Source of the DNA: JBFMHD01 sp040752395 [NCBI: Candidatus Hydrogenedentota bacterium]
GTDB taxonomy: Bacteria; JBFMHD01
Length of the DNA: 15,276 nt
Direction of reading: 5' to 3'
Assembly (NCBI GenBank): GCA_040752395.1
Contig: JBFMHD010000055.1
Coordinates: 1 to 15,276 of the forward strand
Of the stretch, positions 6,654 through 10,510 are shown one piece after another (position 1 is the stretch's first letter; each line of letters begins with the position of its first letter). A program made the translations under genes and the position numbers. The notes beneath the pieces were generated by a model. That model made no database searches. It was not told the DNA's origin and worked only from the letters and a program-made list of their open reading frames with translations.

Positions 6654-7136
6654 TTGAGAATCAAAACTAAACCCTATGGTGAAGTTGAAATAAATGAAGC
6701 TAATATTATAAAAATAGTTGATGGTTTATTTGGGTTTCCTGGTCTTGAAAATTATGTATTTCTGGAGTCAAAAACAGAGGGTCCCTTTTTATGGCTGCAG
6801 AGTCTTGACGAGCCAGGATTGGCATTTGTGGTTATCAGACCCGAAGAATTTAAAGCAGATTATAAACTAAGCGTTGCACTTGAAGACATTAAATCAATAG
6901 GTTTAGAATCACCGGATGAAGCTGTAAGCATTGCATTAGTTGTGATTCCTCCTGACCCGAAACAGATGACCGCAAATCTTCAAGGACCGATTGTGCTGAA
7001 CGTACAATCCAAAATCGCAAGACAGATGATATCATTAAATCCTGAATATAAAATAAAACATCATATATTAGATGAGATGAAAGTTTTACTCGAGAAAACC
7101 AAAGAAGGAATGCATAAAGAGGAAGTGAAGGATTAA
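6654..7136 (+). CDS. fliW: Flagellar assembly factor FliW
   Basis: FliW is a small cytoplasmic beta-barrel protein that binds flagellin and, when free, binds CsrA and removes it from flagellin mRNA. The 160 residues are close to the family length of about 150. The motif [15 protein letters not shown] and the following [20 protein letters not shown] are characteristic. Translation starts at a TTG: GAGGAG at 6641-6646 is seven bases upstream, and the resulting [13 protein letters not shown] is where family members begin. The stop TAA shares its last A with the ATG of csrA, so the two partners are probably translationally coupled. Expected to be transcribed with flgN-flgK-flgL; no separate promoter is obvious. 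Confidence 0.97.
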
Positions 7137-7381
7137 TGCTTGTTTTAGCAAGAAAGATTAATCAATCTATAATGATAGGTGATAATGTTGAAATTGTTAT
7201 TGTTGATGTACAGGGTGACCAGGTAAAAGTTGGTATTCAGGCGCCTAAAGAAATTAAAATTTTTAGAAAAGAGATATATGATGAGATACAGCGAGAGAAT
7301 ATACTCGCAGCGAGCGCATCGGAAAAAGCACTTGAAAAAATAGAAGAATTACTACCTAAAAAGAAAGACAGAGAAAAGTAA
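7136..7381 (+). CDS. csrA: Translational regulator CsrA
   Basis: CsrA is a homodimeric RNA-binding protein that recognises GGA in hairpin loops and represses translation, classically of flagellin when paired with FliW. The 81-residue sequence has the full fold ([38 protein letters not shown]). The RNA-contact residues L4 and R44 known from E. coli are conserved. N55, which I recall as important for FliW sensitivity in Bacillus, is also present (QRENI). The charged C-terminal tail ([12 protein letters not shown]) is longer than in the 61-residue E. coli protein. The ATG overlaps the fliW stop by one base. Its likely targets are the flagellin leaders starting 95 bases downstream, which carry GGA-loop hairpins. 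Confidence 0.97.
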
Positions 7382-7442: not shown

Positions 7443-7469
7443 TAAAGTTTTAATAAAGTTTGTCGATAA
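7443..7469 (+). promoter_or_regulatory. Sigma-28 promoter upstream of flagellin 1
   Basis: TAAAGTTT at 7443-7450, an 11-base spacer, and GTCGATAA at 7462-7469 match the sigma-28 consensus TAAAGTTT-N11-GCCGATAA at all but one base. A second TAAAGTTT at 7454-7461 abuts the -10 and is wrongly spaced to act as a -35. Transcription would start near 7476, giving a leader of about 325 bases before flagellin 1 that contains two terminator-like hairpins. The promoter could therefore drive flagellin, a short leader RNA, or both. Confidence 0.85.
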
Positions 7470-7483
7470 TATTAATGAATAGG

Positions 7484-7526
7484 CCTTGTAATGTTTTTAT
7501 AATTCTTTTAATTACAAGGATTTTTT
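7484..7526 (+). terminator. Terminator-like hairpin between csrA and flagellin 1
   Basis: CCTTGTAAT (7484-7492) and ATTACAAGG (7511-7519) form a 9-base stem with an 18-base loop, followed by A and six T (7521-7526). It would end the flgN-csrA transcript. It also starts about eight bases after the predicted sigma-28 start site, so it would lie at the very 5' end of the flagellin leader. Confidence 0.6.
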
Positions 7527-7539
7527 CGGTAAGGAAACC

Positions 7540-7627
7540 GGGAAACTAAAAAGTATTCCAGGGATGGTTTTAATTAAATTTGAATTCCCAAAACCCTGGT
7601 AAATAGAAAGTTTCCCAGGGTTTTTTT
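7540..7627 (+). promoter_or_regulatory. Attenuator-like element: intrinsic terminator with competing antiterminator fold
   Basis: Terminator fold: AAAACCCTGG (7590-7599) pairs with CCAGGGTTTT (7615-7624), followed by a T-tract to 7627. Alternative fold: GGGAAACT (7540-7547) pairs with AGTTTCCC (7609-7616), enclosing CCAG (7558-7561) with CTGG (7596-7599) and GGTTTT (7566-7571) with AAAACC (7590-7595). Both terminator arms are used in the alternative fold, so the two exclude each other. A CsrA-like sequence, CAGGGATGG (7559-7567), lies in the 5' arm of the alternative fold. The pairings are seen in the sequence; function as a transcriptional switch is inference. It matches no riboswitch class I recognise. 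Confidence 0.55.
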
Positions 7628-7674
7628 ATTTTATAATGTAATTTTGTGTTCTTTCAAAACTAAATTATTTAAGA

Positions 7675-7753: not shown

Positions 7754-7793
7754 ACAGGAATGACAAGGATGTCAAATTTATGAATCAAGGAGG
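7754..7793 (+). promoter_or_regulatory. CsrA-binding hairpin and ribosome-binding site of flagellin 1
   Basis: TGACA-AGGA-TGTCA at 7761-7774 is a perfect 5-base stem presenting AGGA in a tetraloop. Its ACAAGGATGT matches the last ten positions of the known CsrA consensus RUACARGGAUGU. ACAGGA lies just before it at 7754-7759. The ribosome-binding site ATCAAGGAGG (7784-7793) lies 10 bases after the stem and itself contains GGA, so one CsrA dimer could bridge both and block ribosomes, as in the Bacillus hag leader. Confidence 0.75.
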
Positions 7794-7802
7794 AAAAAAA
7801 CC

Positions 7803-8765
7803 ATGGCATTTAGAGTTAATTCAAACATTCCCGCTCTCTTTGCTCAGAGACAACTCACAATAACAAACTTCAAAGTACAGAAGAATATTGAGCGATTATC
7901 CTCTGGTTACCGCATCAATAGAGCAGCTGATGATGCAGCAGGGTTAGCAGTCAGTGAAAAATTAAGAACACAGATAAATGGTATAAAACAGGCAAGACTG
8001 AATGTTCAGGATGGTATCTCTTTAATCCAGACAGCAGAAGGTGGTCTTCAAGAGATACAGGATAATTTACACAGATTACGAGTTTTAGCAATCCAATCAG
8101 CAAACGATATCTTAACTACAGTTGATAGATATCTAATCCAGCTTGAGTTTAATCAGGTTCTTGATGAGATAGACAGAGCTGCTTCCTCAGTACAATTTAA
8201 CACCAAACAATTGTTAAGAGGAGCATATTCTCTGGATATGGTAAGTAATCCTTCAGGAACTAATAATACTTATCCAGGTAGTTTAGTGCTTCACGTAGGT
8301 GCGAATGCGAATGATACCATAGCTATTCATATACCGAGCATATCGACAGCAGCTTTGGGAACGGTTCATGGCCAGTTTAGCTCCCCTTCCGGTATAAAAA
8401 TATCATCATTAAGGGTTGATAACGTAACAGGGTATAATACAAGATTATCGATACTTGCAGCGAATGCTGGTGTGATGACACGAAGAGCAGCTGAATCAGC
8501 AATCGGTATAATAACAAGCGGTATAAATATGGTTTCTGAAGTAAGAGCGAACCTTGGTGCGTGTCAGAACAGATTAGAGTCAACATTTAATTTCTTGGGT
8601 GTTGTGCTTGAAAATATAACGAGTTCTGAATCAAGAATCAGAGATGTTGATGTAAGCGCAGAGGTGGTAGATTTTACTAAGAACCAGATATTAGTTCAGA
8701 CAGGTACAGCAGCGTTAGCTCAAGCAAACGTAGCACCGCAGACCGTTTTGCAGTTGTTACAGTAA
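7803..8765 (+). CDS. fliC: Flagellin 1
   Basis: A flagellin of 320 residues, the subunit polymerised outside the cell into the filament. N-terminal D0/D1 (1-140) contains NIERLSSGYRINRAADDAAG, ISLIQTAEGGLQEIQ and LQRL-like HRLRVLAIQSAND; C-terminal D1/D0 (about 225-320) contains ESRIRDVDVSAEVVDFTKNQILVQTG and ends APQTVLQLLQ. The middle of about 80 residues is too short for large D2/D3 domains. C254, in LGACQNRLE, is unusual since flagellins normally lack cysteine. A strong AAGGAGG lies nine bases upstream. It resembles flagellin 3 more than flagellin 2. Control is predicted at three levels: sigma-28 promoter, attenuator-like leader, and CsrA sites. The symbol is generic; hag or fla would serve equally. 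Confidence 0.95.
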   Translation: MAFRVNSNIPALFAQRQLTITNFKVQKNIERLSSGYRINRAADDAAGLAVSEKLRTQINGIKQARLNVQDGISLIQTAEGGLQEIQDNLHRLRVLAIQSANDILTTVDRYLIQLEFNQVLDEIDRAASSVQFNTKQLLRGAYSLDMVSNPSGTNNTYPGSLVLHVGANANDTIAIHIPSISTAALGTVHGQFSSPSGIKISSLRVDNVTGYNTRLSILAANAGVMTRRAAESAIGIITSGINMVSEVRANLGACQNRLESTFNFLGVVLENITSSESRIRDVDVSAEVVDFTKNQILVQTGTAALAQANVAPQTVLQLLQ

Positions 8766-8846: not shown

Positions 8847-8914
8847 AAAGCCTCATAAAACATTCTCTTAACCGTGAAAAACGGTTAAGAGACATAGTGA
8901 TTTTATGAGGCTTT
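8847..8914. repeat. Long two-stage hairpin downstream of flagellin 1
   Basis: Outer arms AAAGCCTCATAAAA (8847-8860) and TTTTATGAGGCTTT (8901-8914) are a perfect 14-base match. Inside, TCTCTTAACCGT (8864-8875) and ACGGTTAAGAGA (8881-8892) are a perfect 12-base stem with loop GAAAA; the internal loop is 3 and 8 bases. It follows the flagellin 1 terminator by 16 bases and has no proper T-tract. It could be a backup terminator, an RNA stabiliser, a small RNA or a miniature mobile repeat. Confidence 0.75.
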
Positions 8915-8972
8915 TGGCGTTCTTTGAAAAAATAATATTAACATTCATTGCCAAAATTAAGCTACAATGTTA

Positions 8973-10428: not shown

Positions 10429-10490
10429 CATAACAAGGAAATGCGGGATGTTATGGTGATGAAAGAACCACGGATGGTTCTGGTTCTTTT
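10429..10490 (+). promoter_or_regulatory. Flagellin 3 leader: GGA-loop hairpins with alternative terminator-like fold
   Basis: CATAACA (10429-10435) and TGTTATG (10449-10455) enclose a 13-base loop containing two GGA motifs. AGAACCA-CGGA-TGGTTCT (10464-10481) is a perfect 7-base stem with GGA in a tetraloop. Alternatively AAAGAACC (10462-10469) can pair with GGTTCTTT (10482-10489), followed by further T, giving a terminator-like hairpin. CCACGGATGGTTCT matches CCAGGGATGGTTTT of the flagellin 1 leader at 12 of 14 bases. CsrA control is inferred. Confidence 0.55.
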
Positions 10491-10510
10491 TAATCTTTCC
10501 TTAAAGACCC

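What the first reader, a model, noticed from the sequence alone, without database searches (positions are those of the whole stretch)
7540..7627. Mutually exclusive terminator and antiterminator in the flagellin 1 leader, with a CsrA-like site in the switch
Seen: AAAACCCTGG (7590-7599) with CCAGGGTTTT (7615-7624) plus T-tract is a good intrinsic terminator. The same arms can instead pair with CCAG/GGTTTT (7558-7571) and GGGAAACT (7540-7547). The 5' arm contains CAGGGATGG, close to the CsrA core CARGGAUGU. Inference: CsrA bound there would free CCCTGG to form the terminator, so flagellin transcription would be attenuated when CsrA is free of FliW. Known CsrA-FliW control of flagellin is translational; control by intrinsic attenuation would be a new layer.
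Basis: partly seen in the sequence, partly recalled or inferred. Interest (0 to 1): 0.72.

Follow-up and report, generated by a model that had tools for sequence, protein, structure and literature searches.

The report
CsrA-gated terminator before flagellin gene
In an uncultured bacterium the RNA leader of a flagellin gene carries a transcription stop signal that, by folding prediction, forms only when GGA-rich (CsrA-type) stretches upstream of it are covered, and two related genomes show a similar design, which suggests that a known translation regulator may also switch flagellin transcription off.

Summary
The terminator and its competing arms are real, at the stated coordinates, in a leader behind a sigma-28-type promoter (7443-7469) between csrA and flagellin 1. 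The competition exceeds chance: the terminator forms with P 0.09 in the native leader, about 0.90 with the upstream part shuffled (0 of 200 as low); 0 of 19 simple gene-end terminators are competed this way. Blocking either GGA arm restores 0.94. In G293 and G158 (one phylum) the order is sigma-28-like promoter, perfect CsrA core, terminator; the core is the leader's best complement of the terminator, and blocking it shifts P from 0.61 to 0.87 and from 0.06 to 0.97. Four other leader terminators show no switch. Caveats: the competing fold also reaches the U tract and may itself terminate; blocking many other leader stretches also raises P; CsrA binding, start site and termination are inferred. 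Separately, a boxA-like (Nus) motif occurs in six of 92 flagellin leaders. New variant of a known kind; mechanism about 0.45 likely.

The parts
7443..7469 (+). sigma-28-type promoter TAAAGTTT-N11-GTCGATAA
   Evidence: one mismatch to a consensus that is recalled; expected start near 7476 is inferred
7484..7526 (+). hairpin T1 (CCTTGTAAT / ATTACAAGG) followed by T run; its 3' arm holds a CsrA-like TTACAAGGAT
7527..7540 (+). small hairpin CGGT-AAGGAA-ACCG with GGA in the loop
7531..7547 (+). GGA-rich competing arm; GGGAAACT (7540-7547) pairs with AGTTTCCC (7609-7616)
7558..7571 (+). second competing arm CCAGGGATGGTTTT (CsrA-like CAGGGATGG); CCAGGG pairs with CCCTGG 7594-7599
7590..7627 (+). intrinsic terminator T2 with U tract
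7648..7659 (+). boxA-like motif GTTCTTTCAAAA
   Evidence: one departure from the strict pattern
7761..7774 (+). CsrA-type hairpin TGACA-AGGA-TGTCA near the ribosome-binding site
7786..7793 (+). Shine-Dalgarno / second CsrA-type site CAAGGAGG
6654..7136 (+). fliW
   Evidence: PF02623, E 1.6e-35
7136..7381 (+). csrA
   Evidence: PF02599, E 1.1e-24
7803..8765 (+). flagellin 1

Best explanation
The leader of the sigma-28-driven flagellin transcript is a protein-responsive attenuator. Nascent RNA first folds into a competing structure in which GGA-containing arms (7531-7547 and 7558-7567) pair with the loop and arms of terminator T2. When CsrA is free (flagellin holding FliW), CsrA binds the GGA arms, the competing structure cannot form, T2 folds and transcription stops near 7627. 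When FliW holds CsrA, the competing structure persists and RNA polymerase reads through into flagellin, where the usual CsrA sites at the ribosome-binding site give a second, translational control. Shown by computation: promoter motif, terminator, mutual exclusion beyond chance, effect of blocking the arms, similar layout in two relatives of one phylum. Inferred: CsrA binding to these arms, the start site, that T2 terminates and that the competing fold does not.
For: Promoter 15 of 16 consensus positions. P(T2) 0.09, rising to 0.94 when either GGA arm is blocked; 0 of 200 shuffles and 0 of 19 simple natural terminators are as strongly competed. G158: 0.06 to 0.97, 0 of 200 shuffles; G293: 0.61 to 0.87, 2 of 200. 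In G293, G158 and G354a the leader window most complementary to the terminator is a perfect CsrA core, and in the window it contains GGA; all four pair from the terminator loop into its 3' arm; shuffled-terminator p 0.01, 0.005, 0.06 and 0.035. G293 and G158 conserve promoter, site, a second hairpin and terminator; the terminator stem has one two-sided compensatory change, the site-loop helix three one-sided changes that keep pairing (compared by eye). fliW and csrA lie directly upstream.
Against: The competing fold's outer stem reaches the end of the 3' arm in the window, G293 and G158, so both folds might terminate. 4 of 7 leaders show no switch; site-terminator complementarity is not significant in G354b, G028 and G121 (p 0.17, 0.985, 0.51). 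Blocking is not specific to the site: over all 10-nt blocks the mean P is 0.46 in the window, 0.75 in G293 and 0.46 in G158, with 90th percentiles 0.94, 0.87 and 0.97; blocking a single GGA triplet (7533-7535) gives 0.15. 10 of 15 csrA-flagellin spacers have no accepted leader terminator. The two GGA arms in the window are imperfect CsrA sites, and the ANGGA excess in 7476-7627 is weak (3 against 1.06 expected, 0.068 of shuffles). At 25 C P(T2) is 0.42 from start 7476 and 0.86-0.92 from 7500 or 7527. Two end pairs of the G293 site-loop helix are lost in G158. I saw the site-loop match by eye before testing it. The loose control gave 25 of 76. G293 and G158 are one phylum. No RNA data.
Confidence: 0.45

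Rival explanations
1. The promoter-to-T2 unit is a short sigma-28-dependent RNA that binds CsrA (a sponge), ending at the U tract in either fold; the competing folds hide or expose its CsrA sites, and flagellin comes from occasional read-through.
For: Both folds end in a stem at the U tract; GGA sites lie between promoter and terminator in the window, G293, G158, G354 (two leaders), G028 and G121; the C. jejuni flaA leader acts as a CsrA antagonist (PMC4894983, abstract and passages).
Against: No other promoter for flagellin is seen between 7628 and 7803 in the sigma-70 scan or sigma-28 search, so the gene still needs read-through; the sites in the window are few and imperfect.
Confidence: 0.25
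2. T2 is the ordinary terminator of the fliW-csrA operon, lying by layout after the flagellin promoter; the pairing with upstream arms is incidental.
For: No accepted terminator lies between the csrA stop (7381) and the promoter; 4 of 7 leader terminators show no switch.
Against: A constitutive terminator would not be expected to be unfavourable in its own transcript: P 0.09, 0 of 200 shuffles, 0 of 19 natural terminators; the same in G158.
Confidence: 0.15
3. Ribosome-mediated attenuation: a 12-codon frame (7563-7601, ATG in the CCAGGGATGG arm, stop in the T2 loop) lets a translating ribosome decide between the folds.
For: The frame ATG GTT TTA ATT AAA TTT GAA TTC CCA AAA CCC TGG TAA is in the sequence (read by eye).
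Against: No Shine-Dalgarno at a usual distance; in G293, G158 and G354a the corresponding ATG is followed at once by a stop (ATGTAA, ATGTGA).
Confidence: 0.05

Closest known systems
CsrA-FliW-flagellin partner switch (B. subtilis hag; C. jejuni flaA)
   Same: fliW-csrA next to flagellin; CsrA hairpin site plus a site over the Shine-Dalgarno of flagellin (7761-7793), as for flaA (passages) and hag (passages)
   Different: Described control is of translation; the passages seen describe no intrinsic leader terminator. Here a terminator sits between promoter and ribosome-binding site
TRAP attenuation of the B. subtilis trp operon
   Same: A leader-binding protein induces termination by choosing between two competing RNA structures (PMC3913778, start of abstract)
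   Different: Protein, site type and signal differ; a functional analogy only
CsrA-promoted Rho-dependent termination in the E. coli pgaA leader
   Same: CsrA remodels leader RNA and promotes termination (PMC7652899, passages)
   Different: Rho-dependent, not an intrinsic terminator; other operon
CsrA and the TPP riboswitch of the L. pneumophila thi operon
   Same: A CsrA site overlaps a leader element followed by a putative intrinsic terminator (PMC5338858, passages)
   Different: There CsrA favours expression and a metabolite riboswitch is involved

Membership tests
Protein-dependent intrinsic leader attenuator | intrinsic terminator between promoter and first gene | tested here: met
   T2 at 7590-7627, promoter motif upstream; termination itself not shown
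Protein-dependent intrinsic leader attenuator | mutually exclusive competing structure beyond chance | tested here: met
   loose control against
Protein-dependent intrinsic leader attenuator | competing structure leaves no stem next to the U tract | tested here: not met
   outer stem of the competing fold reaches the end of the 3' arm in the window, G293 and G158
Protein-dependent intrinsic leader attenuator | read-through changes with the protein | not testable with these tools
   needs RNA or in vitro transcription
CsrA target RNA | GGA in a hairpin loop, core ACARGGAUGU | tested here: inconclusive
   Met at 7761-7774, outside the switch; imperfect at 7531-7547 and 7558-7567; core met in the G293 and G158 leaders; binding not tested
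CsrA-FliW flagellin circuit | fliW, csrA and flagellin together, hairpin site plus Shine-Dalgarno site | tested here: met
Known Rfam leader or riboswitch | match at gathering score | tested here: not met
   0 matches in the window and in 6 relatives' loci; sub-threshold His_leader and PyrR scores are far below cut-off

The most novel reading that the evidence does not exclude
Flagellin transcription in several candidate phyla is switched by CsrA through intrinsic termination: the leader's CsrA sites are matched by complementary sequence in the terminator, so that CsrA freed from FliW shuts flagellin off at transcription as well as at translation, and a Nus boxA element in some of these leaders keeps the elongation complex processive afterwards.
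Probability: 0.3. Interest if true: 0.75.

Novelty: new variant of a known kind. Interest (0 to 1): 0.58.

Why it matters
CsrA-FliW control of flagellin is described as translational. If CsrA also decides whether the flagellin message is finished, the feedback from export to expression acts before most of the RNA is made, and CsrA joins the proteins that control intrinsic attenuators. The prediction is concrete: two GGA arms, one termination site, one sign of effect. The paper searches made here (the listed titles and abstract starts, and passages) showed no CsrA-controlled intrinsic terminator in a flagellin leader; most subscription papers are not covered.

Tried and rejected
Rfam leaders and riboswitches: nothing at gathering score; sub-threshold hits rejected. 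FliW as a query in genome contigs and viral contigs found no relative; the window's genome is not held, so relatives were reached by stepping from a distant flagellin locus. Phylum searches around G078, G028 and G144 gave only two genomes each. The leader has no match in plasmids. The loose natural-terminator control was judged contaminated but is reported. Loci above 48% GC or under 2000 bases were left out of the strict control, and none of the seven tested leaders fell in it. The seven leaders tested were chosen by me because a promoter or CsrA-like site preceded the terminator; other flagellin spacers with hairpin-plus-T sites (for example L063, L081, L069, L071, L167) were not tested, as they may end the preceding gene. 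Leaders were reduced from 103 to 92 by shared 40-mers before the boxA count. The helix labelled T1 was placed off register, so its zeros mean nothing; T1 is formed. A weak G353 leader terminator shifts only from 0.55 to 0.68 when a purine-rich upstream stretch is blocked. The strong hairpin of L105 was not counted, as its 961-nt spacer probably holds another gene.

Full report
Context. On one strand the window carries flgN, flgK, flgL, fliW, csrA and three flagellin genes; a comF-like and a formyltransferase gene before them are named from recalled resemblance. The csrA stop ends at 7381 and flagellin 1 starts at 7803. A sigma-28-type promoter, TAAAGTTT-N11-GTCGATAA, lies at 7443-7469 with one mismatch to a consensus that is recalled; up to 3 mismatches it is the only match in the window, and 0.33 are expected by chance. 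The sigma-70 scan lists no + strand site between 7628 and 7803. So flagellin 1 is expected to be transcribed through everything from about 7476 on.

The observation. T2 folds at -15.9 kcal/mol, z -3.0. In the leader the minimum-energy fold is the competing one. In growing transcripts the inner competing helix (7558-7563 with 7594-7599) has P 0.93 or more from 7601 on, the outer (7540-7547 with 7609-7616) has P 0.98 at 7616, and T2 never exceeds 0.07. With the outer arm cut off (start 7548) T2 has P 0.91-0.96 at 25-60 C. At 37 C starts between 7440 and 7535 give T2 0.03-0.44; at 25 C they give 0.11-0.92. Forced energies for 7527-7632 are -35.7 (competing) and -29.7 kcal/mol (T2) (all).

Is it more than chance? 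With T2 fixed and the upstream leader shuffled (dinucleotides kept), T2 forms with mean P 0.90; 0 of 200 shuffles are as low as the observed 0.09. Among 19 simple gene-end terminators in loci of at most 48% GC none has P of 0.67 or less; mean 0.93. A looser set that admitted long irregular hairpins and GC-rich genomes gave 25 of 76 at P 0.09 or less; I think it contaminated, but it is a result against.

What the arms look like. Blocking 7531-7546 or 7559-7567, as a bound protein would, raises P(T2) from 0.09 to 0.94; blocking the CsrA-like site in T1 (7512-7521) gives 0.36 and one GGA triplet (7533-7535) 0.15. The effect is not confined to CsrA-like sites: over all 10-nt blocks mean P is 0.46 in the window, 0.75 in G293 and 0.46 in G158. 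CsrA sites follow RUACARGGAUGU with GGA in a hairpin loop (PMC7652899, passages).

Relatives. The best-scoring FliW proteins are in one phylum of 19 held genomes, 4 of them with a match: G353 55%, G354 52%, G293 50%, G158 50% identity. Among 13 genomes searched with the flagellin, G078 is nearest (61%). Of 15 csrA-to-flagellin spacers, 5 have an accepted strong leader terminator: window, G028, G121, G293, G158. Two further flagellin leaders of G354 have one. In G293 and G158 the order is sigma-28-like promoter, CsrA core (ACAAGGATGT, ACAGGGATGT), a second hairpin, terminator. These blocks align well between the two; the stretch between terminator and ribosome-binding site differs in length. 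The terminator stem has one two-sided change (A-U to G-C); the site-loop helix has three one-sided changes that keep pairing, and two end pairs are lost (by eye).

The link between site and terminator. After seeing such a match by eye I compared every 12-nt leader window with the terminator by duplex energy. The best window is the CsrA core in G293 (-14.1), G158 (-15.7) and G354a (-15.7), and the GGA arm ACCGGGAAACTA in the window (-15.0); all four pair from the terminator loop into its 3' arm. For GGA-containing windows against shuffled terminators p is 0.01, 0.005, 0.06 and 0.035. G354b (0.17), G028 (0.985) and G121 (0.51) are not significant; in G121 it is the 3' strand of the CsrA hairpin that pairs best with the terminator (-18.1). 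In the folding test G158 goes from 0.06 to 0.97 and G293 from 0.61 to 0.87 when the site is blocked, while G354a, G354b, G028 and G121 stay at 0.94 or more. So 3 of 7 leaders show a switch, two of them from one phylum.

Interpretation. The layout fits attenuation in which CsrA removes a competing fold and lets the terminator form, which agrees in sign with CsrA repressing flagellin. The main weakness is that the competing fold ends in a stem at the U tract in the three switching leaders and might terminate too; then the unit would be a short CsrA-binding RNA, for which the C. jejuni flaA leader as a CsrA antagonist is a precedent (PMC4894983, passages). CsrA-dependent termination is known for pgaA (Rho; PMC7652899, passages), and a CsrA site overlapping a riboswitch with a putative intrinsic terminator for thi (PMC5338858, passages). 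Searches listed no paper whose title or abstract start names a CsrA-controlled intrinsic terminator in a flagellin leader.

A second signal. GYTCTTTRAMA, a boxA-like pattern fixed after the first examples were seen, occurs 6 times in the sense strand and 0 times in the antisense of 92 leaders (28,117 bases; shuffles mean 0.20, largest 2). A looser pattern gives 7 sense, 3 antisense, shuffles mean 1.47, largest 7. The window's copies are 7648-7659 (one departure from the strict pattern) and 8919-8930. Of three genomes in which a 16S gene was found, G158 has GTTCTTTGACAA downstream of it; G313 and G120 have none in the fetched flanks. The published boxA survey used GYTCTTTAANA within 50 nt of gene starts in gamma-proteobacteria, and its main text holds no word beginning 'flagell' (PMC5725501, passages). 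A review passage reports a proposal that uS10 with NusB raises antitermination of long flagellar operons (PMC10931766). boxA lies downstream of T2, so it would not be expected to act on T2.

Noticed in passing
window 7648-7659 and 8919-8930; leaders in L086, L087, L078, L023, L170: boxA-like Nus antitermination motif in flagellin leaders of at least two phyla besides the window: strict pattern 6 sense, 0 antisense in 92 leaders, shuffle mean 0.20. Pattern fixed after the first examples.
   Followed up: partly
window 10463-10491: Flagellin 3 leader: AAGAACC-ACGGAT-GGTTCT-GGTTCTTTTT. The first GGTTCT makes a small hairpin with GGA in its loop, the second would make a terminator, so the two exclude each other; the sign would be opposite to flagellin 1.
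   Followed up: no
window 7484-7526: Hairpin T1 followed by six T right after the expected start; its 3' arm is a CsrA-like site (TTACAAGGAT), so CsrA could open it.
   Followed up: partly
leaders in L059, L073, L155, L029, L085: Strong Shine-Dalgarno strings (GGAGGTGA) far from any flagellin start, some without a start codon at a usual distance.
   Followed up: no
window 8847-8914: Inverted repeat with 14-bp outer and 12-bp inner perfect arms just before the boxA upstream of flagellin 2.
   Followed up: no
L018 and L028 (G028, G121): Shared leader block between a CsrA-type hairpin and beyond the terminator (TTTTTCACATGGAGGTTTGATAAT ... TTAGCCTATTC ... GTAGGT-T tract ... GGGCTCATGAGA); no Rfam match.
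   Followed up: partly
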